This document shows, piece by piece, positions 9,520-58,443 of a stretch of 64,000 nucleotides of DNA. Within the stretch, counting starts at the first letter, position 1; every line of letters begins with the position of its first letter. Source of the DNA: Haliea alexandrii. Its GTDB lineage: Bacteria > Pseudomonadota > Gammaproteobacteria > Pseudomonadales > Halieaceae. The DNA is taken from NCBI RefSeq assembly GCF_003719295.1, contig NZ_RFLW01000003.1, positions 434,001 to 498,000 on the forward strand, given 5' to 3'. Both the position numbers and the translations under genes were made by a program. The notes beneath the pieces were generated by a model that did not search any database, was not told the origin of the DNA, and saw only the letters and a program-made list of their open reading frames with translations.

Positions 9520-9722
9520 GCGGCTAACCTCTACCTGATAAATACGCCAGTGTACTGCCCTTCCCGTTTCTGGTGTAGCGGGTGTAAGCTGTCCTGACGG
9601 CATTCCCGCAGCGCTGCCACTGTACTGTCACACTTTTGCCCTAATGTGCAGGCAGAAGCACCCCCATGCAGTGAACCAAAGTGTCAGCGCCAGGTCTGAC
9701 TGGGAAGAACAAGGACTTCAAC

Positions 9723-32871: not shown

Positions 32872-33627
32872 CTACTGCGGGAGGGCGCCATCGAGGCGTA
32901 AATCGTAGCCCGCCGCCACTGGCCGCGCCAGCAGGGCGAGCGCTTCCTGTAACAGCGGATCCCAGGTTTCGTCATGGGTCAGTAAAATGGCGATGCTATA
33001 GTCGCGCTGTCGCAACTGCAACTCTCCCTCGGCACGCAGGGGGCCGGCGAGCGTGACTATGGTGCCGGCCAAAACCCCGGGGCCGGTATCCCGTATATCC
33101 GCGGCGTAACTGCCCAGCGGCAGCAGACCCTGCGGTGAATCCCAGGCCGCCTGCTGCCAGGTCAGCCGCGCGGTCGCCTCCAGCGGCAAACCGTCGCGCA
33201 GGTGCAGCGTCTCGGCCTGGGCTGTCATTCGCCCCGTGAGGGCTATCGGCGCCAGGTGTCGCAACAGCGCTGCATCAAATCGCGCCTCGACATCGGACAG
33301 GATGACCTCGCGTTCGCCACGCCAGGCGACAACAGCCGCCAGTTCCTGGTCACTCCAGCGGGCGTGTATACGCAGTGTGGGGGCCGCCACGAGCAGCGAC
33401 AGCGGACGCAAGGACCAGGTCACCTCGCCCAGATGCAGAATGCCGGCATCAGTGGACACCCGCACACGGCTCGCGCGGCCACTCCACACCGTACCTGACA
33501 AGCCGTCAGCCGCGACCGGCGTACCCGCGAGAACACGATTCAGCACGTGCGCAGGCGCGCCCGCCAGCAGCAGGACAATCAACAACAGCAGGGCGGCGAC
33601 CCCCGCGAGCAGCTGCGCGCGGCTCAT
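32872..33627 (-). CDS. gspN: Type II secretion system protein N
   Basis: A 251-residue protein with an N-terminal membrane helix ([24 protein letters not shown]) and a periplasmic beta-rich domain with [11 protein letters not shown] and WSLRPLSLL, typical of GspN. GspN is a non-universal inner-membrane part of the secreton. It is the last gsp gene. Its ATG overlaps the gspM stop (ATGA). The low sequence conservation of the family means the call also leans on position. Confidence 0.88.
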
Positions 33628-34094
33628 GGCTGACCGATCCGCACCGTCGCATTGACCAGGCCCGCGCTGCCCGCCTGTGTGATCGCAACTTCTGCGAACA
33701 CCAGGCCCTCACGCATTTCGAGCTGATGCAGCCAGGCCGCAAGATCGGCAAAACGGGCGTTTTCCAGGCGCACCTGCAGGTCGCCCCGCGCACCCGGTTG
33801 CAACCTGCTCACTGACAGGCCGTAACGGGCGGTACTCTGATTGACCACTGCGGCGAGATTGCTGCCCGAGCGCACCGGCGTATTACCCTCCCGCGCCTGC
33901 AATACCAGCGCTGACAGCGCATCCACGCGCACCAGCGTTTCCGCTGTCGCGCTGTTCTGCTCCGCCATGCGATCGCGTTTGGCAGCCATCGGCGACCACA
34001 GGGCTACCCACAGCAACCACACCGCCACAGCCACCGCCAACACCAGCACGCTGGACTGCTCCCGCACCGTGAGGCGCACCCACCAGGCTTTCAT
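33624..34094 (-). CDS. gspM: Type II secretion system protein M
   Basis: A 156-residue bitopic inner-membrane protein. It has a short cytoplasmic N-terminus, one helix (SSVLVLAVAVAVWLLWVALWSPM), a coiled-coil-like stretch and a ferredoxin-like periplasmic domain. GspM pairs with GspL to hold the ATPase platform. The ATG shares one base with the gspL stop (TGATG), so translation is coupled. A GTG one codon upstream is also possible. Confidence 0.9.
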   Translation of the reverse strand: MKAWWVRLTVREQSSVLVLAVAVAVWLLWVALWSPMAAKRDRMAEQNSATAETLVRVDALSALVLQAREGNTPVRSGSNLAAVVNQSTARYGLSVSRLQPGARGDLQVRLENARFADLAAWLHQLEMREGLVFAEVAITQAGSAGLVNATVRIGQP

Positions 34095-35287
34095 CACGCG
34101 CCCCTCACCCGGATGCGGGCTCGCACCCCGTCACCTTGCGCACTGCTGCTCTCCATTTCAGCCGCCAGACCCGCATCGGTGAGCCCCGCACGCAGCTGCT
34201 CAACCGCAGAAAAATCGCTGGCAACAATATTGAGGCGCATCTCGCCGCCACGCTGGTTGTAGTTCAGGCTGAGTACCCGCATGGCCGGACGCTCGGCAAT
34301 CACGCGACCGGCGCGCTCCAGCAAGGGCACGAAACTGCCCGCGCCGGGTCCACCACGCAGGCTATCCAGCTGCCGTTGCAGCTGTCGCTCGGCGTCCACC
34401 AGCGCACCCTGGGGCATGGCCTGGCGGTAACTTGTCTCCAGCGCGCCACGCAACACCCGATTCTCGCTTGCCAGGGCGCGGTAGTCCGCCCATGTCGCCG
34501 CCAGCTGCAAGACGAACGCGCCGAGCAGTAAACTGGCGGCGACACGCCAGTAGTTCCACCATTGCACCAGCGGCAGGCGTGGCGCATAAGCGCCCTGGCG
34601 CAGGTTCAATGCCGCGTCATCAGCCGATAACAGTAATGCGCTGCAGAGGTTACCCTGCCGCCATTGCACACGCTCCCGCAGCGCCGCTGGCAGCAAATCG
34701 AGTGCGGCTGCCTGATCGGCCGCATAGAAAATGACGGTCTCCGGCATCTCTGCCTCAGCCGCAGCCGCGAGCACGGCGGGCAGCAGCTCGCGCTCCACCG
34801 CGTAGCCCTCGGCCTCACCGCTGCGCACCAGTACCTGCGTGCCATCCATGACCAGGCACCATTCACCCGCACGCCACGGAAGCAGCAGCGTTTCCGGCAC
34901 CCACCGCGGCAAATCCGGCAGATGCGACAGGCGCTGCGCCCAGTACGCCATCGCCCGGTGGCTACACATCGCCACCGCATAGCGGGTTTTATCCAGTGCC
35001 CGCGAGGCGAAATGCAGAGCGTCTACGTCTTCGGCAACCTGCTCCTCGAACATGAACGGCAATGCCCGCGCCAGATGCTTCTTCTCTGCCGCTGTTACCT
35101 CCAGCGACAGTAAGCGCACATCGGCACCCGGGGCTGCGAAGCATGCCTGCCAGCGCGAACTGCGCAGACTGACGACGAAGTTTGCGACCTCTTCAGCACT
35201 GCCCAGCGGCCGCGGCTGCTCACCCGCACCGGGTGGATACCAGACAAGCGCATCATCCATCAGGCGTACGATGGCTAGGTTCTGCAC
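34094..35287 (-). CDS. gspL: Type II secretion system protein L
   Basis: A 397-residue inner-membrane platform protein. The N-terminal actin-like cytoplasmic domain binds the ATPase GspE. A membrane helix follows near residue 260 (VAASLLLGAFVLQLAATW), then a periplasmic domain with a ferredoxin-like end (RVLSLNYNQRGGEMRLNIVASDFSAVEQLRAGL). The chosen start is GTG at 35287 with GGAGAG upstream; the frame continues 44 codons further into sequence that overlaps gspK and lacks conservation. Arrangement between gspK and gspM is canonical. Confidence 0.92.
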   Translation of the reverse strand: MQNLAIVRLMDDALVWYPPGAGEQPRPLGSAEEVANFVVSLRSSRWQACFAAPGADVRLLSLEVTAAEKKHLARALPFMFEEQVAEDVDALHFASRALDKTRYAVAMCSHRAMAYWAQRLSHLPDLPRWVPETLLLPWRAGEWCLVMDGTQVLVRSGEAEGYAVERELLPAVLAAAAEAEMPETVIFYAADQAAALDLLPAALRERVQWRQGNLCSALLLSADDAALNLRQGAYAPRLPLVQWWNYWRVAASLLLGAFVLQLAATWADYRALASENRVLRGALETSYRQAMPQGALVDAERQLQRQLDSLRGGPGAGSFVPLLERAGRVIAERPAMRVLSLNYNQRGGEMRLNIVASDFSAVEQLRAGLTDAGLAAEMESSSAQGDGVRARIRVRGA

Positions 35288-35330
35288 AGAGTTCTCTCCG
35301 TTGTCATCAATCCGGGGGATGGCGAGCGGG

Positions 35331-36335
35331 TCACAGGCTGCCCATCGCTCGCACGATTGGCCGCACCGCGCGCTTGTCGCGCTGCAGGACACTGTACAAG
35401 CGCATCTTGCGCTCGGCAACTTCCACCTCCGCAGACAGCAGAAACCAGGAGGAGCTTTCCCCCAACAGGCTACCCGCGTCGGTCATGGTCTTCTCGCCGA
35501 AAACGGAATGGGCGAGGAACGTCTCAAGGTCGGCAAACCCGCCTTCCTCCTGCTGCGTCTGCCAGAGTGCGTCGCCCTGGGCCTCGCTGAGGGGGGTAAG
35601 CTCACCGTCACCATTGATCGCGCGCAGCAAGGGCAGCGATGCCGTGTGAATATTCAGCGGCGCCGGCGTGCGCGGCCAGACCGTGACCCAAGGCGCCAGT
35701 GCCACATACAGTTGCGGTGTCATGTTGGCGACCGCACGCAGCTCGCTAACGCTCGCCATGGGGTGGTTGGCCGCACGGTAGGCGGGCGTCTGCCCACTGT
35801 AAACATCATCCTCCGCGCCGAACGCACGGGGAATGCTGTCCTCATCCAGCCAGTCGCCGATAGCGCGTGTGACCGCCACCGCCTCGGCCTGCCCCAGCGC
35901 AGCATCCGGGAGTGCCTGCAGCAGACGGATGAAAAAGGCCTCGGCCGGGGTGAAGCGCTGGCCCGCCTCCCCGGGTTCAGTCGGCGCTGCCGCCAGTGTA
36001 TTGAGGTTGAAGCGCCCCTGCAGATCCTGCAACGACCCGACCAGCCAACCGCCCTCGTCCAGTGGATACGGGGTCGCCTGCTGCGCCCAAATTTCGTTCT
36101 TGTCGTCACGCGGCTGCGCACGGGACTGGTCGGCGTCGTAATCCATCACCAGGGCCACCGCGGCAAGCTCTTCGGCCCCGCGCAGGTAGGCATAGCCCTG
36201 GTCCTGTAAAAACAGATTTGCGCCGCGTTGCGCAAACAGGGTGAACTCACGCTGCATGGCGACCATGAGGGCAGCACACAGGCCGAACACCAACAGGGCG
36301 ACCACCAGTGCCACGCCGCGCTCTGCCAGGCGCAT
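35331..36335 (-). CDS. gspK: Type II secretion system minor pseudopilin K
   Basis: A 334-residue large minor pseudopilin that caps the pseudopilus tip. The short basic leader before the hydrophobic segment (MRLAERG followed by VALVVALLVFGLCAALMVAM) is the prepilin-peptidase site; as expected for GspK, Glu at +5 is not conserved. The alpha domain insert typical of GspK contains GRFNLNTLA, AIGDWLDEDSIPRAFGAED and NHPMASVSELRAV. The ATG at 36335 is 8 bases after the gspJ stop. Confidence 0.94.
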   Translation of the reverse strand: MRLAERGVALVVALLVFGLCAALMVAMQREFTLFAQRGANLFLQDQGYAYLRGAEELAAVALVMDYDADQSRAQPRDDKNEIWAQQATPYPLDEGGWLVGSLQDLQGRFNLNTLAAAPTEPGEAGQRFTPAEAFFIRLLQALPDAALGQAEAVAVTRAIGDWLDEDSIPRAFGAEDDVYSGQTPAYRAANHPMASVSELRAVANMTPQLYVALAPWVTVWPRTPAPLNIHTASLPLLRAINGDGELTPLSEAQGDALWQTQQEEGGFADLETFLAHSVFGEKTMTDAGSLLGESSSWFLLSAEVEVAERKMRLYSVLQRDKRAVRPIVRAMGSL

Positions 36336-36342
36336 ACCGGGG

Positions 36343-36987
36343 CTACAAGGGCGGCAGTGCATACAACATCCGCAGGTCGCCGAGATCATCCAGCTCCAGC
36401 GTCAGTTCCAGCGCCGCCGGGGGCGCCAGGGTGGCATTCGGTTGACTGGTATCCAGCACCCAATTATCGGGCCAATTGCGCGTATCCACCTCAGTGCCCC
36501 GGGCGCCCGGCTGCAAGGCCGCCACCGAGGCCAGAAACGTGATCTGAACCCCTGTCACCCCCTCCAGCAGGCGCACCCGCTGCGGCTCGGTCGAACCCGC
36601 ACGGTCCAGCACGGCGTAGCTCTCGCGCCACAGGCTGTCTTCCTGCCACACATAGTTGACCCGCTGCAGCGTGCTGCGCGGCTGGCCCGTCGGGTTATGC
36701 CAGCCGGTGCGGGTAAAGCTGAGCAGAAAGCGCGCGGCAGGCCCCCCCATCAGGGCCGGCTCCTGCTCGCCGAATTCATCCCGGACTGGCCGGTCGACGA
36801 ATTGTCGCAGGTCGCGCTGCAGTATCTGGAGGGCACGATTCACCTCCCAGGTGCGCTCAGCAACCCCGCGGGTACTCTCGACGCCGTTGATAACGGTGGA
36901 CAGACCGGTGTACGCCACCGCCGCCACAAACGCCGTTATGGCCAACGCGATCAGCACTTCCACCAGGGTAAAGCCGCTAGCTCGCAA
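36343..36987 (-). CDS. gspJ: Type II secretion system minor pseudopilin J
   Basis: A 214-residue minor pseudopilin with the prepilin signature (ASGFTLVEVLIALAITAFVAA; cleavage after Gly, then Phe and Glu at +5). It forms the tip complex with GspI and GspK. No ATG or GTG sits near the signature. I chose a TTG at 36987, 8 bases after AGAGGG, which gives a 5-residue leader; it overlaps gspI by 11 bases. Alternative starts further upstream would overlap gspI by much more. Confidence 0.9.
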   Translation of the reverse strand: MRASGFTLVEVLIALAITAFVAAVAYTGLSTVINGVESTRGVAERTWEVNRALQILQRDLRQFVDRPVRDEFGEQEPALMGGPAARFLLSFTRTGWHNPTGQPRSTLQRVNYVWQEDSLWRESYAVLDRAGSTEPQRVRLLEGVTGVQITFLASVAALQPGARGTEVDTRNWPDNWVLDTSQPNATLAPPAALELTLELDDLGDLRMLYALPPL

Positions 36988-37444
36988 AACGGAAACCCTC
37001 TGCCCGCTGCCGCGCCACGCTATCCTGCCGCTCGCCACCCGGCGCGGCGAGGAAGGCGACCAGGGAATAGAGCAACGGCCCGCCATCCTCCTCACCGGCA
37101 CGCACGGTAATTTCCACCCGGTAGAAACCTTGCACCTCGGTCGGCGTGCTTTCCAGCCGCCAGTACCAGGGGCGGCCGGCAAACGCCTCACTGCCGCTGT
37201 CGGAGCCGCGCAACAGCTCACCCCGTGCGGCGCTCAACAGGCGCAACTCCACCAGTTTGTTGTTGGCCACCAGCTGCGCCAGCGACTTGTCACGCAAATA
37301 GCCCGTGCCGTCCACCTGCTGATGCAGGGCGAACAACAACGCGGGCAGGGCGAGCGCCACGATCGCCAGTGCCACCATCACTTCCACCAGTGTGAAACCA
37401 CGCACGCTGCGGGCACGGCGACTAGCGCGACGGATAGGCGTCAT
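36977..37444 (-). CDS. gspI: Type II secretion system minor pseudopilin I
   Basis: A 155-residue minor pseudopilin. The basic leader MTPIRRASRRARSVRG ends at the prepilin site G-FTLVEVMVALAIVALALPA with Glu at +5. It nucleates the pseudopilus tip with GspJ and GspK. The ATG at 37444 overlaps the gspH end by 23 bases. The block DKSLAQLVANNKLVELRL matches the family's A-x-x-I-A-x-N-x-x-x-E region after the helix. Confidence 0.94.
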   Translation of the reverse strand: MTPIRRASRRARSVRGFTLVEVMVALAIVALALPALLFALHQQVDGTGYLRDKSLAQLVANNKLVELRLLSAARGELLRGSDSGSEAFAGRPWYWRLESTPTEVQGFYRVEITVRAGEEDGGPLLYSLVAFLAAPGGERQDSVARQRAEGFRFAS

Positions 37445-38024
37445 CGATCTCACCCCGGGGCAACATCGTCATACGCCCCAGCAAGTCCCACTCCAGCCGC
37501 CAAAGCACTTTCGCCGTGTCTCGATCACGCCATTCCAAAGCGCCCGGGGCCACTTCGCCACTGGCGTAGAACACCACCTGGGGCGCGGCGTCCTCGGCCA
37601 GCGGCGCAGCCAGCAAATCAGCGGTGGGTATATCATCCAGCAGCAACACCAGTTCGACCTCCGCGGGCAGCGTGCGCGGCGCCAGCACCTCGCGCGCCAG
37701 CGCCGGCGACCGCCAGCCCTCGGCACGCCGCTCGCGCCAGTCGTAGAGGTATTGGGTTTGCGCACCGCGCGCATCCACCGCCAGCACCAGACCCATGTCC
37801 CGCCCCGCCATCTGCGCCTCTTCCAGGGCGAACTCCGCGACATTGCGCAACTCACGCACCTGGGATTCAAGCACCTGTTGCCGTCCGCCATCACCCACGT
37901 TGAGGGTGGCGAGCGACGTCATCAACACAATCACGAACAGAACGACCAGCAGTTCAACCAGGCTGAAAGCGCGACACCGTGCGGCACACGGCCGCGATAA
38001 CCCCGCGCCCACCTGCCGCCACAT
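37422..38024 (-). CDS. gspH: Type II secretion system minor pseudopilin H
   Basis: A 200-residue minor pseudopilin. The prepilin site is RAFSLVELLVVLFVIVLMTSLATL, where Ala replaces the usual Gly before cleavage and Phe and Glu at +5 remain. The leader is unusually long (about 19 residues) if the ATG at 38024 is right. The C-terminal domain has EFALEEAQMAGRDMGLVL. The Ala at -1 is tolerated by some prepilin peptidases; processing could be less efficient. Confidence 0.9.
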   Translation of the reverse strand: MWRQVGAGLSRPCAARCRAFSLVELLVVLFVIVLMTSLATLNVGDGGRQQVLESQVRELRNVAEFALEEAQMAGRDMGLVLAVDARGAQTQYLYDWRERRAEGWRSPALAREVLAPRTLPAEVELVLLLDDIPTADLLAAPLAEDAAPQVVFYASGEVAPGALEWRDRDTAKVLWRLEWDLLGRMTMLPRGEIDDAYPSR

Positions 38025-38028
38025 GGAA

Positions 38029-38478
38029 TCAGTCCCGTTCCTTCCAGTTGCCAATATCGGCGTTCTGGCCTTCGCCACCCGACAGGCCATCGGCGCCAAG
38101 GCTGTAAATATCCACTTCACCATTTTCGCCCGGGCTCAGGAACAGGTAGGGGCGTCCCCAGGGATCCAGCGGCACTTCCGGCAGGTAACCGCCGTCTTTG
38201 AAATTACGTGGCTGCGGGTCGAGATTGCTCGCCTCGACCAGCGCATCAAGGCCCTGCTCGGTGGTGGGATAGACGTAGTTGTCGAGCCGATAGATTTTCA
38301 GCGCAGTCTCGATCGCCTTGAAATCGGCGTGAACTTTCTGGATGCGCGCTTCATCCGCCCGGTTGAGCACCGTGGGTGCCACGACACTGATCAGCAGCCC
38401 CATGATCACCAGCACCACCAGAATTTCCACCAGCGAGAAACCGCTGTGCGTCCGCCTTGCTGTAGTCGGCAATTTCAT
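38029..38478 (-). CDS. gspG: Type II secretion system major pseudopilin G
   Basis: A 149-residue major pseudopilin that builds the pseudopilus shaft. The leader MKLPTTARRTHSG is followed by FSLVEILVVLVIMGLLISVV with Glu at +5. Family blocks are strong: ADFKAIETALKIYRLDNYVYPTTEQGLDALV, LPEVPLDPWGRPYLFLSPGENGEVDIYSLGADG. The ATG at 38478 is 4 bases after the gspF stop. Confidence 0.97.
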   Translation of the reverse strand: MKLPTTARRTHSGFSLVEILVVLVIMGLLISVVAPTVLNRADEARIQKVHADFKAIETALKIYRLDNYVYPTTEQGLDALVEASNLDPQPRNFKDGGYLPEVPLDPWGRPYLFLSPGENGEVDIYSLGADGLSGGEGQNADIGNWKERD

Positions 38479-38482
38479 ATCA

Positions 38483-39703
38483 CTATCGCACCATCGTATT
38501 GAGATCAAAAATCGGCAACAGAATGGCCATGACAATGACCAACACCATGCCGCCCATAAACACCACGAGCAAGGGTTCGAGCAGGCTCATGAGTGTTCCC
38601 AGTGTCATTTCCAGTTCGCGCTCCTGATTGCTGGCCGAACGCGCCAGCATGGTCTCCAGTTCGCCACTGGCTTCGCCGCTGGCCACCATGTGCACCATCA
38701 TCGGCGGGAACCGGCCATTCTCTCGCAGCGCCCGGTGCAGGCTGCTTCCCTCCTGCACCCGCTCGGCCACGCGGGCACTGTCCTCCCGCAGCACCAGATT
38801 GGTCAACACCTGCCCGGCAATGCGCAGCGACTCCAGCAGGGGCACCCCGCTGGCCATGAGAATACTCAGGGTCGAGGCAAAACGCGCCGTGTCCATCGCT
38901 ATCACCAGCCGGGAAAAACCGGGCACGCGCAGCAACAGGGCATGCCAGCGCCGGCGACGCTGAGGCTGGCGCAGCCAGCGCCGCAGCCCGAACACCAACA
39001 ACACCAAGGCCACCAGCACCCACAGCGCGTAATCGCGCGAAAAATCGCTGGCGACAATCAAGCCGCGGGTCAGCAGCGGCAACTCGCGATTGGTGTGTGC
39101 AAAAATGCCGATCAGCTCGGGTACGACAAAAATCATCAGTGCCACAACCACCGCCAGCGCCACGGCGATCAGGATAAACGGATAGATCATGGCCATTTTC
39201 AGCTTTTGCGCGGTGTACTGACGCTGTTCGTTGTAATCGGCCAACTGCGCCAGCACCGGGCCGAGAAAACCGGCGTGCTCCCCGGCGTTGACCATGGCCC
39301 GGTACATTTCGTTGAACACCAGCGGGAACTCACCCATGGCATAGGCCAGCGTATGACCCTCGGCGACCCTGGAGCGCACCTGCAACAGCAGCCCCTGCGT
39401 GCGGCCCTTGCGGCTCTGTTCGGCGGCTGCCTGCAAACATTCGTCCAGCGGCAAATTGGACTGCACCAGGGTGGCGAGCTGCCGGGTCACCAGCGCCAGT
39501 TCAGCGACACTGATACGCGGCTGCAGAAACGACCAGCCTGAACGCGGCTTGCTCTCCGCCTGGCGGTTTGCCACCGCAACGTCGACCGGGCGCAGCTTCT
39601 GCGTGCGCAGCTGGCCGCGCACCTGGCGCTCGGAATCACCTTCCAGTACGCCCTTGACCAGCTTGCCGCTGGCATCCAGTGCCCGGTAACGATATGCGGT
39701 CAT
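38483..39703 (-). CDS. gspF: Type II secretion system inner-membrane platform protein F
   Basis: A 406-residue polytopic platform protein. Two repeated GspF/PilC domains are visible, each followed by helices (MIYPFILIAVALAVVVALMIFVVPEL, YALWVLVALVLLVFGLRRW and the C-terminal LLEPLLVVFMGGMVLVIVMAILLPIFDLN). It contacts GspE and GspL and is thought to couple ATP hydrolysis to pseudopilus growth. It lies 14 bases after the gspE stop. Confidence 0.97.
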   Translation of the reverse strand: MTAYRYRALDASGKLVKGVLEGDSERQVRGQLRTQKLRPVDVAVANRQAESKPRSGWSFLQPRISVAELALVTRQLATLVQSNLPLDECLQAAAEQSRKGRTQGLLLQVRSRVAEGHTLAYAMGEFPLVFNEMYRAMVNAGEHAGFLGPVLAQLADYNEQRQYTAQKLKMAMIYPFILIAVALAVVVALMIFVVPELIGIFAHTNRELPLLTRGLIVASDFSRDYALWVLVALVLLVFGLRRWLRQPQRRRRWHALLLRVPGFSRLVIAMDTARFASTLSILMASGVPLLESLRIAGQVLTNLVLREDSARVAERVQEGSSLHRALRENGRFPPMMVHMVASGEASGELETMLARSASNQERELEMTLGTLMSLLEPLLVVFMGGMVLVIVMAILLPIFDLNTMVR

Positions 39704-39717
39704 AAGCGCCTATCGGC

Positions 39718-41223
39718 TCAGGTGACAGCGGTGACGCGCAGCACTTCTTCGATGCTGGTTTCACCGCTCAGGATGCGCCGGCGACCGTCCTCCTGAATCC
39801 CCGGATAGTGCTTGCGCGCTTCGAGCAGCATCTGCTGCTCGCTCGCGCCCTCGTGAATCATCAGGCGCAGCGCATCCGTCACCTCGATCAATTCGTAAAT
39901 GCCGGTGCGACCGCGGTAGCCACCGAAATTGCACTGTTCGCAGCCCTTGGCCCGATAGACACTGACCGCTGTAGTCGTATCCGCAGAGAGTCGCAGCAGC
40001 GTGCGCTCGGAATCTGCCAGCTGATGGGGCTCCTTGCAGTCGCGACAAAGCAACCGCACCAGCCGCTGGGCCATCACGCCAATCAGGCTTGATGACAGCA
40101 GGAAAGGCTCAATACCCATGTCCTGCAGACGCGTCACTGCACCGATGGCAGTATTGGTGTGCAGCGTGGAGAGCACCAAGTGCCCGGTGAGGGACGCCTG
40201 TACCGCAATTTCCGCCGTTTCCAGATCGCGAATCTCGCCCACCATCACCACGTCAGGGTCCTGCCGCAGAATAGCCCGCAGGCCGCGCGCGAAGGTCATG
40301 TCGACCTTGGGATTGACCTGCGTCTGCCCCACCCCTGGCAGCATGTATTCCACCGGGTCTTCGATGGTGAGGATGTTGCGCGTGGCCTGGTTGATATGCG
40401 ACAGGCCGGCGTACAGCGTTGTGGTTTTACCCGACCCCGTCGGGCCGGTTACCAGGATGATGCCGTGTGGACTGCGCAGGGCCTTTTCGTAACTGTGCAG
40501 CACCTGCTCATTCATGTTCAATTGCCGCAGCTCCAACTGCCCGGCCTGCTTGTCCAGCAGGCGCAGCACCACGCGTTCGCCGTGGGCAGAGGGCATGGTC
40601 GACATGCGGATATCAATGGCGTGCCCGGCTATGCGCACGGAAATGCGGCCATCCTGGGGCACCCGCTTTTCAGCGATGTCCAGTTTCGCCATCACTTTCA
40701 GCCGCGACACCAGCAGCGGCGCCAGCATCCGCTTCGGGGACAGCACCTCCGCCAGCACACCATCCACCCGATAGCGCACGCTGAGCCGGTCCTCGAAGGT
40801 CTCAATATGGATGTCCGAGGCCTGCTCACGCACGGCCTGGGACAGGATGGCGTTGATCAGGCGAATAATGGGCGCATCGTCCTCGGCGTCCATCAAATCG
40901 CCCGCGTCCGGTATTTCATCGGCGAGACGGCTGAGGTCGACATCGGCACTGATGTCTTCCGCCATCTGCACCGCCGCGTTGTTGTCGCGTTGGTAGGCGC
41001 GGGAGAGGCGCCGCTGGAACTCGGCATCCGACACCGTCTCGCATTCGAACGGGGCGCCCAGCCAGCGACGAATCTCCAGCAACAACGGGGCCTCGAGAGG
41101 GCTACGATGCACGAGCACCGCACCCTGCGCCCGGTTATCGACCAGCACGCCAAACTGCTTGGCAAACCCGAAGGGCAGGTTTGCCCTCGGCGGCTCGGGC
41201 ACCGCGACCTCCGCGGAGGACAT
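39718..41223 (-). CDS. gspE: Type II secretion system ATPase E
   Basis: A 501-residue hexameric ATPase that powers the system. It has an N-terminal GspL-binding domain, Walker A VTGPTGSGKTTTLYAGL, the Asp box (NILTIEDPVEY), Walker B (DVVMVGEIRDLETAEIA) and the His box (GHLVLSTLHTNTA). Near the C-terminus is the tetracysteine zinc domain, CRDC and CEQC. Its ATG shares one base with the gspD stop (TGATG). Confidence 0.98.
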   Translation of the reverse strand: MSSAEVAVPEPPRANLPFGFAKQFGVLVDNRAQGAVLVHRSPLEAPLLLEIRRWLGAPFECETVSDAEFQRRLSRAYQRDNNAAVQMAEDISADVDLSRLADEIPDAGDLMDAEDDAPIIRLINAILSQAVREQASDIHIETFEDRLSVRYRVDGVLAEVLSPKRMLAPLLVSRLKVMAKLDIAEKRVPQDGRISVRIAGHAIDIRMSTMPSAHGERVVLRLLDKQAGQLELRQLNMNEQVLHSYEKALRSPHGIILVTGPTGSGKTTTLYAGLSHINQATRNILTIEDPVEYMLPGVGQTQVNPKVDMTFARGLRAILRQDPDVVMVGEIRDLETAEIAVQASLTGHLVLSTLHTNTAIGAVTRLQDMGIEPFLLSSSLIGVMAQRLVRLLCRDCKEPHQLADSERTLLRLSADTTTAVSVYRAKGCEQCNFGGYRGRTGIYELIEVTDALRLMIHEGASEQQMLLEARKHYPGIQEDGRRRILSGETSIEEVLRVTAVT

Positions 41224-43259
41224 CAGTCGGCCTCCACAGCCGCCGGCGTGTTACCCGACTCGTCGCGGATTTCCTGCAACTGGCGGATCTGCTCTTCCCA
41301 CTCGGGCAGCACCGGCACACTGCTATCATCGAGGAACATGAGGCCGCGCTCGCGGCGCAGCACTTGCTGGTCGCGGATGTAGCGATACTTGTCCGCGGTG
41401 GCACCAGCGAGTTGCTCGTCATCGCGAATGATCGTGGGACGGATGAAAATGAGCAGGTTGGTTTTTATGACCTGTACCGCATCATTGCGGAACAGGCGCC
41501 CGAGCAGCGGTATATCACCGAGCAACGGCACCTTCTGGCTGGCGTCCTGCACATCATCCTTGATCAGGCCACCGAGCACCACAACGCGTCCATCCGCCGC
41601 CAACACCTTGGTCTGCAGTACGCGCTCGTTGGTGATCAGGTCAGACGCCTGCAACACCACGGAGGTGTTGCTGAGACTGGAGACTTCCTGGGAGATATCC
41701 AGCACCACAGAGTCTCCCTCGTTGATGTGGGGCGTCACCTTGAGCGTAATGCCCACGTTCTCCCGCTCAATGGTCTGGAACGGGTTTTGCGCGCCATCGC
41801 CGGTCCCGGTGCTGGTAAATGAGCCAGTGACGAAGGGTACGTTCTGGCCCACGGTGATGTAGGCCTCCTGATTGTCCAGGGTCAGCAGGCTGGGTGTTGA
41901 CAGAATATTGGCGTTGGACTTTTCCTTCAGGGCGTTGAGAATGACGGTCATCGACAGATTGTCGTCGATCACGCCCCAGCCCAGGGAAACCCCCGGCGAC
42001 TGGGCCAGCGCGCCCGCCAGGGCGCCCACGTTGAAGTCACCCGTGGTCACGCCGCTATCGGTCCCGTCCCCGCCATCTTCCGGCAGAATGGCCCCGGCTA
42101 TACGTCGCGCCCGCGCATCGTCGGCACTGATGCTGCTGCCGAAAAAACCGTTGTCGTTGGCAAACAGCCACTGCAAGCCCAGATCCTGCCCGTCGCGCAC
42201 TTCCATCTCGACGATAATGGCCTCTACCAGCACCTGCGCGCGGCGGATATCAAGTCGCGCTACAACCGCCTCCAGCGCGGCCATTTTGTCAGTCGGCGCA
42301 GTAATGATCAGGGCATTGGTATTGGCGTCGGCCTCGATGGTCGCGCTGGTTTCAGCCGCACGCTGGGCGCGCCCCGCTTCGCCTGCATCCACCCGGCCAA
42401 TGTTCTGCATGACCTTGGTCAGCACCTCGGCGATGTCCTCCGCCTTGGCGTACTCCAGGTAGATCACCTTTACGTTGCCGCTTTGCTCGAGAGGCGTGTC
42501 GAGATAGCGGATCAGCTGCGTCATGCGCGCACGCTCCAGCTCATCGGCACTGATCAACACGCTGTTGGTGCGCGCATCTGCAACCAGCATGACCTCAACC
42601 TCATTGCCCTGCTGCGCCTCTGAGGTATTGAGCTGGTCGAGCATACGCACCACGTCTTCAGCAACGCCATAGCGCAGCTTGATGACCTCGGTCTCCTGCG
42701 TTGCCGTGCGGTCCATGCGCTCGATGATCGCCGCGATGCGATCAATGTTGGAGGCCACATCCGAAATGATAATGGCATTGCTCGGTGCATACGCCGCCAT
42801 ATGCGCCTGTTGCGGCACCAGGGGTCGCAGCACGGGTATCAGCTTGGCGGCGGAAATGTTCTTCAGGCGCATGACCTGGGTGACGTATTCGTCATTGCCG
42901 CGCCGCCCCTCGTCGTCGCGCACCGTTACCGGTGCCGAGCGGGCGTCTTTGCTCTGTATCACCCGCACGACGCCGCCGGAGCGGACTGCGGTGTAACCAT
43001 GCACTTCCAGTATGGACAGGAAGAGATCATAGAGCTCGGTGCGCGACACCGGCTTGGAGGACACCACCTTGACCTTGCCCTTGACTGCCGGGTCCACCAC
43101 GATCGTGGTCTCGGTCGCCTCCGCCACGAACTTGATCAGCTCCTGAATATCGGCCTCTTTCAGATTGACCGTGAAATCCTGGGCGCTCGCGACAGCTGCC
43201 CACAGGGCAGCCAGCAGATAAAATAGCGGTACTCGCAGTGCCCGCAACATGGTTCTCAC
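41223..43259 (-). CDS. gspD: Type II secretion system outer-membrane secretin D
   Basis: A 678-residue secretin. A signal peptide (MRTMLRALRVPLFYLLAALW, cleaved after AVASA) is followed by domains N0 (FTVNLKEADIQELIKFVAE), N1-N3, and the C-terminal secretin barrel (AYITVGQNVPFVTGS, NVGITLKVTPHINEGDSVVLDISQEVSS split over the barrel, VPLLGDIPLLGRLFRN). It ends without a long S domain, so a GspS pilotin may not be needed. I chose GTG at 43259 with GAGGA upstream; an ATG three codons later is equally possible. Confidence 0.96.
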   Translation of the reverse strand: MRTMLRALRVPLFYLLAALWAAVASAQDFTVNLKEADIQELIKFVAEATETTIVVDPAVKGKVKVVSSKPVSRTELYDLFLSILEVHGYTAVRSGGVVRVIQSKDARSAPVTVRDDEGRRGNDEYVTQVMRLKNISAAKLIPVLRPLVPQQAHMAAYAPSNAIIISDVASNIDRIAAIIERMDRTATQETEVIKLRYGVAEDVVRMLDQLNTSEAQQGNEVEVMLVADARTNSVLISADELERARMTQLIRYLDTPLEQSGNVKVIYLEYAKAEDIAEVLTKVMQNIGRVDAGEAGRAQRAAETSATIEADANTNALIITAPTDKMAALEAVVARLDIRRAQVLVEAIIVEMEVRDGQDLGLQWLFANDNGFFGSSISADDARARRIAGAILPEDGGDGTDSGVTTGDFNVGALAGALAQSPGVSLGWGVIDDNLSMTVILNALKEKSNANILSTPSLLTLDNQEAYITVGQNVPFVTGSFTSTGTGDGAQNPFQTIERENVGITLKVTPHINEGDSVVLDISQEVSSLSNTSVVLQASDLITNERVLQTKVLAADGRVVVLGGLIKDDVQDASQKVPLLGDIPLLGRLFRNDAVQVIKTNLLIFIRPTIIRDDEQLAGATADKYRYIRDQQVLRRERGLMFLDDSSVPVLPEWEEQIRQLQEIRDESGNTPAAVEAD

Positions 43260-43295: not shown

Positions 43296-44357
43296 TCACC
43301 GATCCGTCGACGCAGCATCAAGGCTCACACTGAGTGCCACCGCTTCACCGGCGCGCAGTAGCTCGAATGAGACCTCGCTTGCGGCGCGCATGGCCTGGTA
43401 GAGCCGCATGGTGTTTGCCGGGTCTGACAGGGACAGGCCATTCACCGCCAGCACCAGGTCACCGGGGCGAAATCCCAGCTGCTCGAACTGCGCCCGATCC
43501 CGTCCCGGTGTCACCCGATAGCCCTGCAGGGCGCCCTCCTCGCGCACCGCGCTGATGCGCACCAGATCGGCCAGTGACTGGGGATCCTCATACAGCTGGT
43601 CACGATAGCTCGCCGCCAGCGCTGCGGATTCGGCGTCGGTGCGCCGATCGATGACGGCGGCCGCGGGCGGAGCGGGGCGGGTGTTACCGGTCGCCATTGC
43701 GCGCCGCCCCGCAAGTTGCGCATCAAGCTCGGTTGGGGGGTACAGCCGCAGAAGCTCGTAGGTGCCGCCATTGTCCAGAACCACCTGCTCCGGCATTACC
43801 TTGGCCAGCACTACATTGCCGCCGACAGGCAACTCGTCGTCCACGGAATAAATTGCCTGCCGGCCGCGATACTCAATCACCGCGCTCCCCTCTCCGGCCG
43901 CATTGAAGGCGATGATGCCACGGAGGGTAAGCTCAAGTCGGCTTTCCCGGGCACCTCGCTCGATACCCTCGCGGGCTGCACGCGCCTCGCTGGGGAGTGG
44001 GGCCACCTCTTCCATCACGGATCCAGCGCCGGGCTCACCGAACAGCGCCCAGCCACGCAGTGCCTCAATGTCGACTGGTGTTCGCTCGCCGGACGCTGAG
44101 ATTGCCTCCGCCGGGGGATTGATGACACCACCCGACAACGCGGTTGCAGGCGCTGCAGGGAACAGCGCCCAGAACAACTGCGCCAATGCCGCCATCAACC
44201 AGCATACCGCGACTGCCAGCACACCCCGGCGCAACCAGCGTACACCGCTCGGCTCTGCCAGCATCGCCAGCAGCCGCTGCGCACCGGCCACCCACTTTCC
44301 TGCAACGCTGCCCTGATTCAGTGAACCTGCGGCCAATGCTCTCTCCCGGTGTGCCAC
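43296..44357 (-). CDS. gspC: Type II secretion system protein C
   Basis: A 353-residue bitopic protein linking the inner-membrane platform to the secretin. It has a cytoplasmic N-terminus, a helix near residue 45 (GVLAVAVCWLMAALAQLFWALF), a homology region (LRGWALFGEPG, LTLRGIIAFNAAGEGSAVIEYRGRQAIYSVDDEL) that contacts GspD N0, and a C-terminal PDZ domain (LGFRPGDLVLAVNGLSLSDP) used in substrate choice. It is the first gene of gspCDEFGHIJKLMN. The start is a GTG at 44357. The strong control region upstream is described separately. Confidence 0.94.
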   Translation of the reverse strand: MAHRERALAAGSLNQGSVAGKWVAGAQRLLAMLAEPSGVRWLRRGVLAVAVCWLMAALAQLFWALFPAAPATALSGGVINPPAEAISASGERTPVDIEALRGWALFGEPGAGSVMEEVAPLPSEARAAREGIERGARESRLELTLRGIIAFNAAGEGSAVIEYRGRQAIYSVDDELPVGGNVVLAKVMPEQVVLDNGGTYELLRLYPPTELDAQLAGRRAMATGNTRPAPPAAAVIDRRTDAESAALAASYRDQLYEDPQSLADLVRISAVREEGALQGYRVTPGRDRAQFEQLGFRPGDLVLAVNGLSLSDPANTMRLYQAMRAASEVSFELLRAGEAVALSVSLDAASTDR

Positions 44358-44394: not shown

Positions 44395-44415
44395 ATTATA
44401 GGGTGCGCCATTAAA
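44395..44415 (-). promoter_or_regulatory. Promoter -10 elements for the gsp operon
   Basis: Reading toward gspC, TTTAAT (44415-44410) lies exactly 10 bases after the last PhoB-like half-site, the spacing seen in PhoB-dependent promoters such as phoA. A second, perfect TATAAT lies at 44400-44395. Neither has a good -35 hexamer at 17 bases, which suits an activator-dependent promoter. The leader to the gspC GTG would be about 30-46 bases. Confidence 0.5.
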
Positions 44416-44425
44416 AGATAAAACC

Positions 44426-44465
44426 GTGACGGTTGCATGACAGCCAGATGACGGGGGTATGACAG
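44426..44465 (-). promoter_or_regulatory. Double Pho box (four PhoB half-sites) upstream of gspC
   Basis: On the minus strand, reading toward gspC, four 7-mers follow each other with constant 4-base spacers: CTGTCAT, CCGTCAT, CTGTCAT, CCGTCAC. This is the PhoB arrangement (consensus CTGTCAT, 4 bases, CTGTCAC/T), repeated twice, so two PhoB dimers could bind in tandem on one face of the helix (11-bp period). The half-sites match the consensus 7, 6, 7 and 6 of 7 positions. The spacers are not AT-rich as in E. coli. The orientation faces gsp, not the divergent cysK. Confidence 0.72.
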
Positions 44466-44553: not shown

Positions 44554-45522
<969 letters not shown>

Positions 45523-54930: not shown

Positions 54931-55110
54931 CAACACATGTGGCGACGTTGCTGTGCAGGGAGCGGCAATCAAACAGCCTCAGAGGCCTGCTTCGCGGCCT
55001 GCGGCACTGACAGCGCAGCAACTTGCAAACTGTTACAAAGATGCGCATGTACCGTCACGTAACAACGCGTATCATGTTGCCGTCTGTAATTGGAACACAA
55101 GGATAGTGCT

Positions 55111-55857
55111 GTGGCCGTGGCGAATATTCTGATAATTGACGATGACTTGCTGTTTTGCAAGGTGTTGCGCTATCAACTGGGTGTGCGCAAATACCACTGC
55201 GAGTTCGTTGACTCCTCTACGCGTGCGCTAAAGCACCTGCAACACGAACCCCGCCCTGACCTTATTATGCTCGACTACTTCCTGGGCGAGCAGGACATGA
55301 ATGGCCTGCAGCTCTGCAGCCAGATTAAAACGATGTGCGACGTGCCGACGATCATGCTCACAGCCAATGACGATGTGCGCACGACGATTTCTTGCCTGGA
55401 TGCAGGAGCCGATCAATACATCGTCAAGCCATACGATATTGAAGAACTGACCGCGAGGATTCGCGCGGTACTGCGGCAGCACAGCAGCAACAATCAGCGC
55501 GACAATAGCGCCGCAGCGAGCAGTGTGTTCGAGTGGGAAGCGCTACAACTCGATCCGCTACACCGCACTCTCGGTGCCTTCGGGGAAGAGGTAGCACTTT
55601 CCGAAAAAGAACTGGCGGTATTATCCATTCTCATGCGCAACGCCGGCAGCGCGGTACAACGCAACGACTTGTACAGCATTGTTTACGGCAGAGATTTTGA
55701 CTCCATGAATCGGGCCATGGATGTTCTGGTCGGGCGTGCCAGAAAGAAACTCAAGTCGCTGACGGACAATTACTGCATTCGCTCGGTACGGGGTGCAGGG
55801 TATGCATTACAGCCTACACGGGCCCGGAGAACACCCTATAAGGAAACCCAATCATGA
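55111..55857 (+). CDS. OmpR/PhoB-type response regulator
   Basis: A 248-residue DNA-binding regulator. The receiver domain has acidic residues DDD at 10-12, phospho-acceptor Asp55 (LIMLDYFLG), Thr/Ala in MLTAND and Lys in IVKPYD. The winged-helix C-terminal domain has LSEKELAVLSILMRNAGSAVQRNDLYSIVYG and MDVLVGRARKKLKS. I chose GTG at 55111 with AAGGAT upstream; a TTG 7 codons earlier is less likely. The Hpt gene overlaps its end (ATGA), followed by a hybrid kinase, so this is the output of a three-part phosphorelay. Confidence 0.93.
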   Translation: MAVANILIIDDDLLFCKVLRYQLGVRKYHCEFVDSSTRALKHLQHEPRPDLIMLDYFLGEQDMNGLQLCSQIKTMCDVPTIMLTANDDVRTTISCLDAGADQYIVKPYDIEELTARIRAVLRQHSSNNQRDNSAAASSVFEWEALQLDPLHRTLGAFGEEVALSEKELAVLSILMRNAGSAVQRNDLYSIVYGRDFDSMNRAMDVLVGRARKKLKSLTDNYCIRSVRGAGYALQPTRARRTPYKETQS

Positions 55858-56216
55858 CCACGGAGAAGGCCGTCTTCGACAGTTCGCATCTACCGCATTC
55901 TTTGGAGCTTGACGATTGGGAGGTACTGGCGGATTTCTACGGTACATTTTTACAGCAGCTGGACGCCCTGCTGCTGCTCATTGAACCGCCCTCTCTGCCA
56001 ATGTCATTAGATGAACAACGTCACCACGCACACAAGCTGGGTTCCTCCTGCCGTACTGTGGGGGCACACGCCCTGGCTTCCCTGTTCGAGTCTCTCGAAG
56101 CGCTGTGCCGGGACGCGGCAACCGAGGAAACGCGGGAGCAACTGCTCGCAAACATCGTAACACTGGCAAAAACGACCCGGGGCCGTGTCGCATCGCATCT
56201 TGCAGCAGGAGCCTGA
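55854..56216 (+). CDS. Histidine phosphotransfer (Hpt) domain protein
   Basis: A 120-residue all-helical protein. The segment RHHAHKLGSSCRTVGAHALASLFESLE is the Hpt signature with phospho-acceptor His60. The second helix of the bundle is LADFYGTFLQQLDALLLLIE. It should carry phosphate from the receiver of the hybrid kinase to the response regulator. The ATG overlaps the regulator stop. Its stop lies 7 bases before the kinase ATG I chose, and a GTG-start alternative for the kinase would overlap it. Confidence 0.9.
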   Translation: MTTEKAVFDSSHLPHSLELDDWEVLADFYGTFLQQLDALLLLIEPPSLPMSLDEQRHHAHKLGSSCRTVGAHALASLFESLEALCRDAATEETREQLLANIVTLAKTTRGRVASHLAAGA

Positions 56217-56223
56217 TACCGGC

Positions 56224-58443
56224 ATGCCCGCCACCAGTGCCATTTTCGAGGCCCTGACCGCCAGCCAACTGGGTGCCATGCGCTGGCGCCGCGGTGTTGG
56301 CGCCATTGCGCTCAACCGTGGCCTGTGTACCGCACTGGAATTGCCTGCAGGCACCAACGCCCTGTCCACAGCGAATTTCGAACGTATGCTCTATGAGGAG
56401 GATCGCGCTCGGGTTATCCGCAGTTTCAATCATCACATCGAGCAGGGTTTACAGGAGACCGTCGAGATTCCGCTGCGCGCACGAACCACGCAAGGCGGCA
56501 TACGAAAATTCCAATGCGTGCTCAGTATTGTCACCGATGAAAGTGAATACCAGGACGATGTCATGATCATCCTCCGCGACATGACCGAAGCGGAAATAGC
56601 ACGCACGGAAACACTGCAGAAATCGGAACTGGAGAGGTTGATTATCTCCATCTCCGTCAAACTGCTTGAAGCCCCGATCGAACTGATTGACGCCACAATC
56701 ACCGAGGCGCTGAGTGACACATCAAGCTATGTCGGTGCTGATAGAGCCTACCGGTTCACCTACTACTGGGAGCGGGAAAGCTGTAGCAATACCCATGAAT
56801 GGTGCGCCCAGGGTATCGAGCCACAAATCGATCTCCTGCAGGATATTTCTACCCGGGACCTGCATTTATGGACCAGCAATCACAAGAGCCGCTTGCCTTT
56901 CATTGTCTCCGCCGTGAGCAGCCGCGCGCCGGGTGACGCCCTGCGGGCAATACTCGAACCTCAGGGCATACAGTCACTGGCGACCTTCCCCGAGCTGCTG
57001 GGTGATGATTGTATGGGCTTTATCGGCTTCGACTCGGTAAACAGTGCCCGCCATTACAGCGACGTAGAGATCATGTTGCTGGAATTGCTGGCCGACCTGA
57101 TCACACACACCGAACAGCGACGCCGCCGGGAACAGGAACTACTCGATACGCTTGTATCCCTCAAGGAATCCCGCAACTCGGCCCTCACCATGGCCGCTGT
57201 GGCGAGCTCAGCCAATGAGGCCAAGTCACGCTTCGTTGCCACCATGAGCCATGAAATCCGCACGCCGCTGCACGTCGTTCTCGGCATGACGGAGTTACTC
57301 AAGGGCACAGTGCTGGACGAGAACCAGCGCTCGCTTCTGGATGCACTGGAGTCGTCCGGGCGCAACCTCACGGAGTTGATTGGCGATATTCTGGAGGTCT
57401 CGCGCATCGAAAGTGGCAACCTCGCACTGGAGCCGGTTCCTTTCTCCCTGCCTGACTTGAGTGTCCCGGTGGAGAGAGTACTGCGTCCACTCGCGGAACG
57501 GAAACGCATCAGCCTTGAATTCCAATTGACCACGGGGCTCACCTGCCGCTTTTACAGCGACGCAATCAAGATCCGCCAAGTCATTCAGAACCTCGTGGCT
57601 AACGCCATAAAGTTTACCGAAGCCGGATCAGTGGAGGTTGACCTGTCCGTCACGCAACCCTACAAGAGCACGGCCAAGGACGACTGGCAGTTACGCATCC
57701 GCGTCGCGGATACGGGCATAGGCATGCCGGAAAATGTGCTTGCGCACCTTCATGAGCCCTTTTATCAAGTCAGTGGCGCTGGGCCTGCTCGCGCCAGTGG
57801 CACCGGGCTAGGGCTGGCAATTGTCTATAATTTGGTCAGCGCAATGGGCGGCTCGGTTTCAGTAGACAGCACGCTCGGCTCCGGCTCAACGTTTGAGGTA
57901 ACCTTGCCACTGCAGCAAGTGGGCGTACCGGAAGGCGCCGACAGCACCGGCCAAGCTGTCGATGGGCTTTGTGCCGAAACGGACGCAGACCAGCTTGCCA
58001 ACACGATCAACGGCAAGCGCCTTCTCCTCGCGGAAGACAACGTGATGAATCAGCGGTTGGTGCAGACACATTTAAAAGGGTTCAGTTGCAAACTGGAGTT
58101 TGCTGAAAACGGCGAAGAAGCCGTTGCAATGGTGGAACAGCGCGACTTCGACCTCATCTTGATGGATTGCCAGATGCCAATCATGAACGGTTTCGAGGCA
58201 ACTCGTCGGATCCGCGCGATCTTGCACCAGCAGAACAGGCATCAGCCGGCGGTCCTGGCTGTAACGGCCAACTCAGTGCAGGGCGACCGGGAAAAATGCC
58301 TGGCCTTTGGTATGGACGCAATGCTGAGCAAGCCATTTTCCCGGCAGGATCTTATAACTGCTGTCGCGCGTTGGATCGCGCCGGCCGCCGTTCAACGCCT
58401 CCCCGGCGAGGGGATACCCAAAGTTACAAAGACAGTCGTCTAG
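56224..58443 (+). CDS. Hybrid sensor histidine kinase with PAS, GAF and receiver domains
   Basis: A 739-residue cytoplasmic kinase with no membrane helix. Order: PAS-like domain (residues about 20-130), GAF-like domain (about 150-295, TFPELLGDDCMGFIGFDS), HisKA with His343 (ATMSHEIRTPLHV), the ATPase domain (NLVANAIKFTEAG, DTGIGMP, GTGLGLAIV), and a C-terminal receiver with Asp648 (LILMDCQMPIMNG) and Lys in LSKPFS. A soluble sensor suggests an intracellular signal. ATG 56224 lies about 12 bases after GGAG; a GTG 13 codons earlier is possible. Confidence 0.93.
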   Translation: MPATSAIFEALTASQLGAMRWRRGVGAIALNRGLCTALELPAGTNALSTANFERMLYEEDRARVIRSFNHHIEQGLQETVEIPLRARTTQGGIRKFQCVLSIVTDESEYQDDVMIILRDMTEAEIARTETLQKSELERLIISISVKLLEAPIELIDATITEALSDTSSYVGADRAYRFTYYWERESCSNTHEWCAQGIEPQIDLLQDISTRDLHLWTSNHKSRLPFIVSAVSSRAPGDALRAILEPQGIQSLATFPELLGDDCMGFIGFDSVNSARHYSDVEIMLLELLADLITHTEQRRRREQELLDTLVSLKESRNSALTMAAVASSANEAKSRFVATMSHEIRTPLHVVLGMTELLKGTVLDENQRSLLDALESSGRNLTELIGDILEVSRIESGNLALEPVPFSLPDLSVPVERVLRPLAERKRISLEFQLTTGLTCRFYSDAIKIRQVIQNLVANAIKFTEAGSVEVDLSVTQPYKSTAKDDWQLRIRVADTGIGMPENVLAHLHEPFYQVSGAGPARASGTGLGLAIVYNLVSAMGGSVSVDSTLGSGSTFEVTLPLQQVGVPEGADSTGQAVDGLCAETDADQLANTINGKRLLLAEDNVMNQRLVQTHLKGFSCKLEFAENGEEAVAMVEQRDFDLILMDCQMPIMNGFEATRRIRAILHQQNRHQPAVLAVTANSVQGDREKCLAFGMDAMLSKPFSRQDLITAVARWIAPAAVQRLPGEGIPKVTKTVV

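What the first reader, a model, noticed from the sequence alone, without database searches (positions are those of the whole stretch)
44426..44465. Double Pho box in front of the type II secretion operon
Seen: on the minus strand four 7-mers (CTGTCAT, CCGTCAT, CTGTCAT, CCGTCAC) with exact 4-base spacers, an 11-bp period, ending 10 bases before TTTAAT, the spacing of PhoB promoters such as phoA. Known: PhoB binds CTGTCAT-type direct repeats with 4-base spacers, and the Hxc type II system of Pseudomonas aeruginosa is induced by phosphate limitation. Inference: the only visible secretion machine here is switched on by low phosphate, presumably to export phosphatases or nucleases. The housekeeping-type gspC-N order makes this control unusual.
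Basis: partly seen in the sequence, partly recalled or inferred. Interest (0 to 1): 0.78.

Follow-up and report, generated by a model that had tools for sequence, protein, structure and literature searches.

The report
Low-phosphate switch before secretion operon
A marine Haliea-type bacterium carries a textbook binding site for the phosphate-starvation regulator PhoB in front of its type II protein-secretion genes, kept at the same exact promoter spacing in many relatives, so the secretion machine is very probably boosted when phosphate runs low.

Summary
Confirmed: four 7-mers with exact 4-base spacers (44426-44465, minus strand), 10 bases before TTTAAT, facing a gspC-N operon; the only exact four-repeat array in the 3.96-Mb genome. 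PhoB, PhoR and PstS are present; phoB, pstS and a porin gene share the geometry. The genome is Halieaceae, nearest named GspC Haliea salexigens, 95%.

Of 62 Halieaceae gspC promoters with the family core, 15 carry the half-site, all 15 with TTYAAT ten bases on; none of the other 47 has that -10. Thirteen further Halieaceae and 6 of 9 genomes of another family have a Pho promoter. The array follows gspC, not cysK. Two genomes in box-bearing groups lack both canonical PhoB and the box; three lack a clear box but keep PhoB.

Correction: a family-conserved TATAAT lies 15 bp downstream of TTTAAT, so two overlapping promoters, constitutive and PhoB-induced, fit best: boosted, not simply switched on. 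Cargo is unresolved. A T2SS in the PhoB regulon is reported in Caulobacter: a new member of a known kind. No expression data.

The parts
44459..44465 (-). PhoB half-site 4 (CTGTCAT), distal
   Evidence: at least 5/7 match in 6 of 8 same-genus genomes
44448..44454 (-). PhoB half-site 3 (CCGTCAT)
   Evidence: at least 5/7 in 7 of 8 same-genus genomes
44437..44443 (-). PhoB half-site 2 (CTGTCAT)
   Evidence: at least 5/7 in 8 of 8 same-genus genomes
44426..44432 (-). PhoB half-site 1 (CCGTCAC), proximal
   Evidence: at least 5/7 in 15 of 62 Halieaceae regions with the core, six genera
44410..44415 (-). TTTAAT, -10 of the proposed PhoB-dependent promoter, 10 bp after half-site 1
   Evidence: TTYAAT in 15 of 15 regions with the half-site, 0 of 47 without (rows; 2x2 tested)
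44417..44424 (-). GTTTTATC, conserved -35-position element of the second promoter, 17 bp before TATAAT
   Evidence: alignment of 90 upstream regions
44395..44400 (-). TATAAT, -10 of the proposed constitutive promoter
   Evidence: TATAAT in 59 and TATACT in 3 of the 62 regions with the core; the core was found by searching for TATAAT-like hexamers, so this is partly by construction
43296..44336 (-). gspC; likely start TTG at 44336 after GGGAGAGAG rather than GTG 44357
   Evidence: T2SSC 1.2e-20, TIGR01713 over cut-off; start context seen in relatives
41223..43259 (-). gspD
   Evidence: Secretin and type_II_gspD_N0
39718..41223 (-). gspE
   Evidence: T2SSE
38483..39703 (-). gspF
   Evidence: T2SSF
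38029..38535 (-). gspG
   Evidence: T2SSG
37422..38123 (-). gspH
   Evidence: GspH
36977..37453 (-). gspI
   Evidence: T2SSI
36343..37221 (-). gspJ
   Evidence: T2SSJ
35331..36389 (-). gspK
   Evidence: T2SSK_1st
34094..35419 (-). gspL
   Evidence: T2SSL, GspL_C
33624..34097 (-). gspM
   Evidence: T2SSM
32872..33627 (-). gspN
   Evidence: T2SSN
44554..45522 (+). cysK (cysteine synthase A), divergent neighbour; not the likely target
   Evidence: TIGR01139 over cut-off; box kept with no cysK found within 1500 bp in the five loci of g11, g24, g25

Best explanation
The array is a double Pho box driving the gspC-N operon. When phosphate is low, PhoR phosphorylates PhoB (general knowledge); PhoB binds the four direct repeats as two tandem dimers and recruits RNA polymerase to TTTAAT, ten bases downstream. 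A second promoter (GTTTTATC, 17 bp, TATAAT) overlaps it, its -10 lying 15 bp further downstream, and gives basal T2SS expression. Because the two overlap, PhoB would shift the start site about 15 bp upstream and raise output. Shown: array, spacing, conservation, co-occurrence with TTYAAT, presence of PhoB/PhoR/PstS/PhoU and matching native Pho promoters. Inferred: binding, activation, phosphate response, use of both start sites, and what is secreted.
For: Unique exact array in the genome, 0/100 window shuffles. PhoB over cut-off, PhoR, PstS, PhoU present; the PhoB stretch NVYVEERTVDVHIRRLRKAL differs from E. coli PhoB (3t72, 1qqi) by one residue. Same geometry at phoB, pstS and a porin gene. 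Half-site (at least 5/7) and TTYAAT co-occur 15/15 vs 0/47 (rows; Fisher on these typed numbers). The script's own stricter rule (5 of 6 TGTCAY) printed 14, 0, 1, 47, the one being L051, whose half-site is 5/7. On a gspC/D tree the label needs at least 2 changes among 30 rows and at least 5 among 43 rows incl. another family. Half-site columns vary less than spacers in the genus: mean majority 0.73-0.93 vs 0.50-0.72, further upstream 0.47. A -10 at spacing 8, 9, 11 or 12 equals or beats spacing 10 in 1, 0, 1 and 0 of the 15. PhoB over cut-off in 21 of 21 box-bearing genomes tested and 41 of 51 box-less (one-sided p 0.024, not tree-corrected). G139 and G344, inside box-bearing groups, have only a PhoB-like regulator 42% and 40% identical to own PhoB with an altered recognition helix and no box. 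The array follows gspC, not cysK.
Against: No expression or binding data. G054 keeps canonical PhoB and a box before its own phoB but has no box at the gspC core (a site at -222 is ambiguous); G270 (weak site, 86/1000 shuffles) and G419 (334/1000) likewise keep PhoB. 41 of 51 box-less genomes keep PhoB, so the link is optional. Eight genomes of four other families of the order show no box scoring above 9 (window gspC pairs score 18-20 with a nearly equal matrix). Spacers in the window array are GC-rich, unlike the consensus printed in PMC2225411. The conserved TATAAT suggests transcription without PhoB. Co-occurrence p-values ignore relatedness.
Confidence: 0.86

Rival explanations
1. A different OmpR/PhoB-family response regulator recognises the repeats, so the signal is not phosphate.
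For: The genome holds nine other nearly full-length relatives of PhoB among 40 TIGR02154 matches, one of them in the window at 55090-55857.
Against: Half-sites match the Pho consensus (printed in PMC2225411, passage) and the native phoB/pstS promoters; in two lineages box and canonical PhoB are missing together although other family members remain.
Confidence: 0.06
2. PhoB binds but represses the TATAAT promoter or is neutral: the box abuts the -35 element of that promoter.
For: Half-site 1 ends 2 bp before the TTTTAT element; many E. coli PhoB sites, mostly intragenic, are transcriptionally inert (PMC10294691, title, listing and passages).
Against: TTYAAT at the activating distance occurs only where the half-site occurs; g7, g27 and g6 regions show box + 10 + TTCAAT/TTAAAT and no TATAAT core.
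Confidence: 0.08
3. The array regulates the divergent cysK gene, and gspC proximity is incidental.
For: Shared intergenic region; cysK is divergent in 10 of 30 loci compared.
Against: The repeats point at gspC; the box is kept in five loci of g11, g24 and g25 where no cysK was found within 1500 bp; in L052/L053 cysK lies about 200 bp further away; L054 has cysK and no box at the core.
Confidence: 0.03
4. Chance or relic array in a GC-rich genome without regulatory role.
For: Two-half-site matches with up to 2 mismatches number 350 in the genome, fewer than the reversed pattern gives, 439.
Against: Four exact repeats are unique, half-site columns are conserved, spacing to the -10 is the same in 15 genomes of six genera.
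Confidence: 0.03

Closest known systems
PhoB-activated promoters of E. coli (phoA, pstS; recalled)
   Same: Direct repeats with an 11-bp period (PMC1906773 prints them as 8 bp + 3-bp linker, passage) and a -10 ten bp downstream; PhoB DNA-binding region nearly identical
   Different: Overlaps a second, conserved TATAAT promoter; GC-rich spacers
Caulobacter crescentus T2SS in the PhoB regulon
   Same: T2SS listed in the PhoB regulon and said to be raised in phosphate starvation (PMC11208175, passage)
   Different: Alphaproteobacterium with adjacent elpS, whose release depends on the T2SS (PMC2996285, abstract); promoter layout there not examined here
Pseudomonas Hxc type II secretion system
   Same: Hxc proteins rise under phosphate limitation in P. 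aeruginosa (PMC9769906, passages)
   Different: Hxc is one of two T2SS and secretes the phosphatases LapA/LapB; in P. fluorescens SBW25 hxcR is not phosphate-regulated (PMC2225411, abstract and passages). Here one general gspC-N operon
Pseudomonas Xcp type II secretion system
   Same: General T2SS; XcpQ and XcpS more abundant under phosphate limitation (PMC9769906, table passage)
   Different: A Pho box before xcp was not tested here; the searches listed no paper that I saw report one

Membership tests
PhoB-activated (Pho box) promoter | At least two CTGTCAT-like 7-mers with 4-bp spacers | tested here: met
   Four, all matching CYGTCAY
PhoB-activated (Pho box) promoter | -10 element 10 bp downstream of the box | tested here: met
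   TTTAAT; 15 of 15 regions with the half-site; spacing rule in PMC1906773 (passage)
PhoB-activated (Pho box) promoter | Cognate PhoB/PhoR present, with native Pho promoters | tested here: met
PhoB-activated (Pho box) promoter | PhoB binds and low phosphate induces transcription | not testable with these tools
   needs footprinting and RNA data
General type II secretion system (gspC-N) | gspC to gspN genes in canonical order | tested here: met
Hxc-type specialised T2SS | Second T2SS of the genome with neighbouring lapA-type phosphatase (recalled) | tested here: not met
   One GspC match in the genome at E 0.001; none of the neighbours scanned is a phosphatase; not every neighbour was scanned

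The most novel reading that the evidence does not exclude
PhoB control of the general T2SS is an old, repeatedly reshaped trait of Halieaceae and at least one other family of the order: PhoB promoters without a recognised constitutive core (g2, g3, g6, g7, g27), overlapping constitutive + PhoB promoters (window genus and five others), separate distal Pho promoters (family f43), and constitutive-only descendants; two lineages that have a divergent regulator in place of canonical PhoB lack the box. In the PhoB-only genera general protein secretion would itself be a phosphate-starvation response.
Probability: 0.5. Interest if true: 0.58.

Novelty: new member of a known kind. Interest (0 to 1): 0.45.

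Why it matters
It ties the main protein-export machine of marine heterotrophs to phosphate status through a checkable promoter. Halieaceae would then release exoenzymes, hence carbon and phosphorus from organic matter, partly as a phosphate-starvation response. The natural series of Pho-only, dual, constitutive-only and PhoB-replaced genomes makes the rewiring of a regulon testable.

Tried and rejected
TTTAAT as the only -10: rejected, TATAAT is the more widely conserved element. Pho boxes at own alkaline phosphatases to name the cargo: the stretches before the two phoD genes score like shuffled DNA (589 and 934 of 1000 shuffles reach them); for the second one the stretch lies inside the gene upstream on the same strand, so a promoter of that possible operon was not scanned; phoX 12.6 with poor half-sites (1 of 1000), not counted as evidence. 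PhoA-type phosphatases and nucleases were not searched. Two-half-site matches alone as evidence: rejected, the reversed pattern gives more. cysK as target: rejected. GspC on plasmids: 24 records, all under 60% identical, no help. tRNA genes in the window: none. Other families of the order: 8 genomes of f3, f12, f14 and f27 show no box scoring above 9.

My first count saw Pho promoters in 15 of 90 regions; a scan without the TATAAT requirement added 13 with scores of 13.5 or more and at most 2 of 200 shuffles (g2 four, g7 three, g3 two, g27 two, g6 one, g21 one); the cut was set after seeing the scores. L054 (15.6, site at -222) is ambiguous and not counted; L091 (11.5) and L141 (9.6) pass the shuffle test but were dropped by eye for poor half-sites. 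Dropped before the 15/47 count: 28 of 90 regions without the core, among them one of 10 bases (L128) and one of 287 (L102). The 90 come from 134 genomes with a GspC match; the 44 not read are 42 of genus g21 plus G005 and G129. In one search matches weaker than E 1e-75 were hidden, and 5 of its 8 genomes without a PhoB match are under 90% complete. In the 43-row tree the tool flags long branches, and L164 (g21) was entered as box-less without a scan. In print: the PMC searches (one search listed 12 of 772) showed no title or abstract start on PhoB control of a T2SS in Halieaceae; the three Haliea papers were seen as listings only; subscription journals are mostly missing.

Full report
What is there. 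The minus strand at 44465-44426 holds CTGTCAT, CCGTCAT, CTGTCAT and CCGTCAC with exact 4-base spacers, then ten bases, then TTTAAT (44415-44410). The exact pattern occurs once in the window, with none in 100 shuffles, and once in the 3.96-Mb genome; the next independent place has two mismatches and the reversed-pattern control has none. Downstream lie gspC, D, E, F, G, H, I, J, K, L, M, N in that order, by Pfam. The neighbour on the other strand is cysK. The genome belongs to Halieaceae: named records with the closest GspC are Haliea salexigens (95%) and other Haliea or Halieaceae. GspC gives a single match in the genome.

The regulator. The genome has one PhoB over the curated cut-off, next to PhoR and near PstS and PhoU. 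Its DNA-binding region matches E. coli PhoB of solved structures (1.1e-36), the stretch NVYVEERTVDVHIRRLRKAL differing by one residue. The native promoters have the same layout: phoB TTGTCATTTTATTGTCAC-10-TCTAAT, pstS TTGTCATAATAGTGTCAC-10-TACTGT, a porin gene CTGTCATGAAAATGTCAT-10-TAATAT. On a box + 10 + -10 score using a matrix recalled from memory, gspC reaches 23.9, phoB 22.1, pstS 18.2, porin 26.2. The 10-bp rule is printed in PMC1906773 (passage; repeats there given as 8 bp + 3), and strict spacing is argued in PMC10294691 (passage).

A second promoter. Alignment of 90 Halieaceae gspC upstream regions (of 134 genomes with a GspC match) shows a core GTTTTAWCTTT, 17-bp spacing, TATAAT in 62 (three have TATACT, and the -35-position element varies, for instance GTTTC in g23). 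In the window this is GTTTTATC 44424-44417 and TATAAT 44400-44395. It overlaps the Pho promoter, its -10 lying 15 bp further downstream.

Co-occurrence test. Among the 62, fifteen genomes of genera g1, g11, g19, g24, g25 and g26 carry a half-site of at least 5/7 at the exact place, and all 15 have TTTAAT or TTCAAT ten bases on; none of the other 47 has AAT there (Fisher 1e-14, ignoring relatedness). The script's stricter rule counts L051 as without half-site (14, 0, 1, 47). On a GspC+GspD tree of 30 rows the label needs 3 changes, at least 2 forced; on 43 rows with another family, 6 changes, 5 forced, with long-branch warnings. L054 and L065 lie inside box-bearing clades and lack both elements at the core. 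The distal pair is less conserved than the proximal pair: all four sites reach 6/7 in three of the eight genomes of the genus, G000, G017 and G019.

Wider occurrence. Without the TATAAT requirement, 13 more Halieaceae regions score as Pho promoters: g7 (3), g27 (2), g6 (1), g2 (4), g3 (2), g21 (1). Those of g7, g27 and g6 show box + 10 + TTCAAT or TTAAAT and no TATAAT core. In another family of the order (f43), 6 of 9 genomes have a box + 10 + -10 some 190-270 bp before the estimated gspC start, separate from a TATAAT near that start; 0-5 of 1000 shuffles reach it; for the other three 86, 334 and 764 do. Eight genomes of four further families showed no box scoring above 9.

Regulator and box. 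PhoB over the cut-off is found in 21 of 21 box-bearing genomes tested and 41 of 51 box-less ones (one-sided p 0.024, not corrected for relatedness, some genomes incomplete). Two of the ten exceptions, G139 and G344, sit inside box-bearing groups. Their best match is a PhoB-like regulator 42% and 40% identical to the window genome's PhoB, with a different recognition helix, and they have no box at gspC. Against a strict rule: G054, G270 and G419 keep canonical PhoB without a clear box.

Target gene. cysK is divergent in 10 of 30 loci; the box is kept in five loci of g11, g24 and g25 with no cysK found within 1500 bp, and L054 has cysK without the box at the core. So the array belongs to gspC.

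Mechanism and limits. Most likely PhoB~P occupies two tandem dimer sites and recruits polymerase to TTTAAT, adding to or displacing basal initiation from TATAAT. Binding, induction and start sites are inferred. Cargo is unresolved: the genome has two PhoD and one PhoX phosphatases with twin-arginine-type signal motifs (my reading of the translations), but without convincing boxes in the stretches scanned.

Known context. The T2SS is listed in the PhoB regulon of Caulobacter crescentus (PMC11208175, passage), where release of ElpS in phosphate starvation depends on it (PMC2996285, abstract). In P. aeruginosa Hxc and Xcp proteins rise in low phosphate (PMC9769906, passages); in P. fluorescens SBW25 hxcR does not respond while the exported Psp does (PMC2225411, abstract and passages). 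So the kind is known; what is added is the Halieaceae case, the overlapping promoter pair, the spread across genera and the shared absence of box and canonical PhoB in two genomes. Verdict: real, well supported, a new member of a known kind. On re-checking, the confidence was lowered slightly (0.87 to 0.86) because the box-less genomes of other families and the stricter count had been left out.

Noticed in passing
44334-44349 (minus): gspC probably starts at TTG 44336 behind GGGAGAGAG, not at GTG 44357; the TTG and its context recur in relatives.
   Followed up: partly
L147 1500-1919 (own genome C5:304825): A small protein with an apparent signal peptide (my reading) lies behind a strong Pho promoter (TTGTCACACAGGTGTCAT, 10 bp, TAAAGT; score 23.2): a possible unknown member of the Pho regulon.
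   Followed up: no
L194 (G139), L195 (G344): Two genomes have no PhoB over the cut-off; their best match is a distant PhoB-like regulator with a changed recognition helix near a phoR-like gene: apparent regulator replacement.
   Followed up: partly
44417-44424 and relatives: The -35 position of the family core promoter is GTTTTAWCTTT, far from TTGACA yet strongly conserved; possibly the site of another activator.
   Followed up: no
9614-9647: Pho-promoter-like site CTGCCACTGTACTGTCAC-10-TAATGT upstream of an ATG at 9723; gene not identified.
   Followed up: no
L136-L138, L144, L145 (genus g21): Half-site pairs before gspC with TACACT about 21 bp on, one repeat period further than usual; perhaps degenerate triple boxes.
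   Followed up: no
55090-58443: PhoB/OmpR-family response regulator followed by a hybrid sensor kinase on the plus strand.
   Followed up: no
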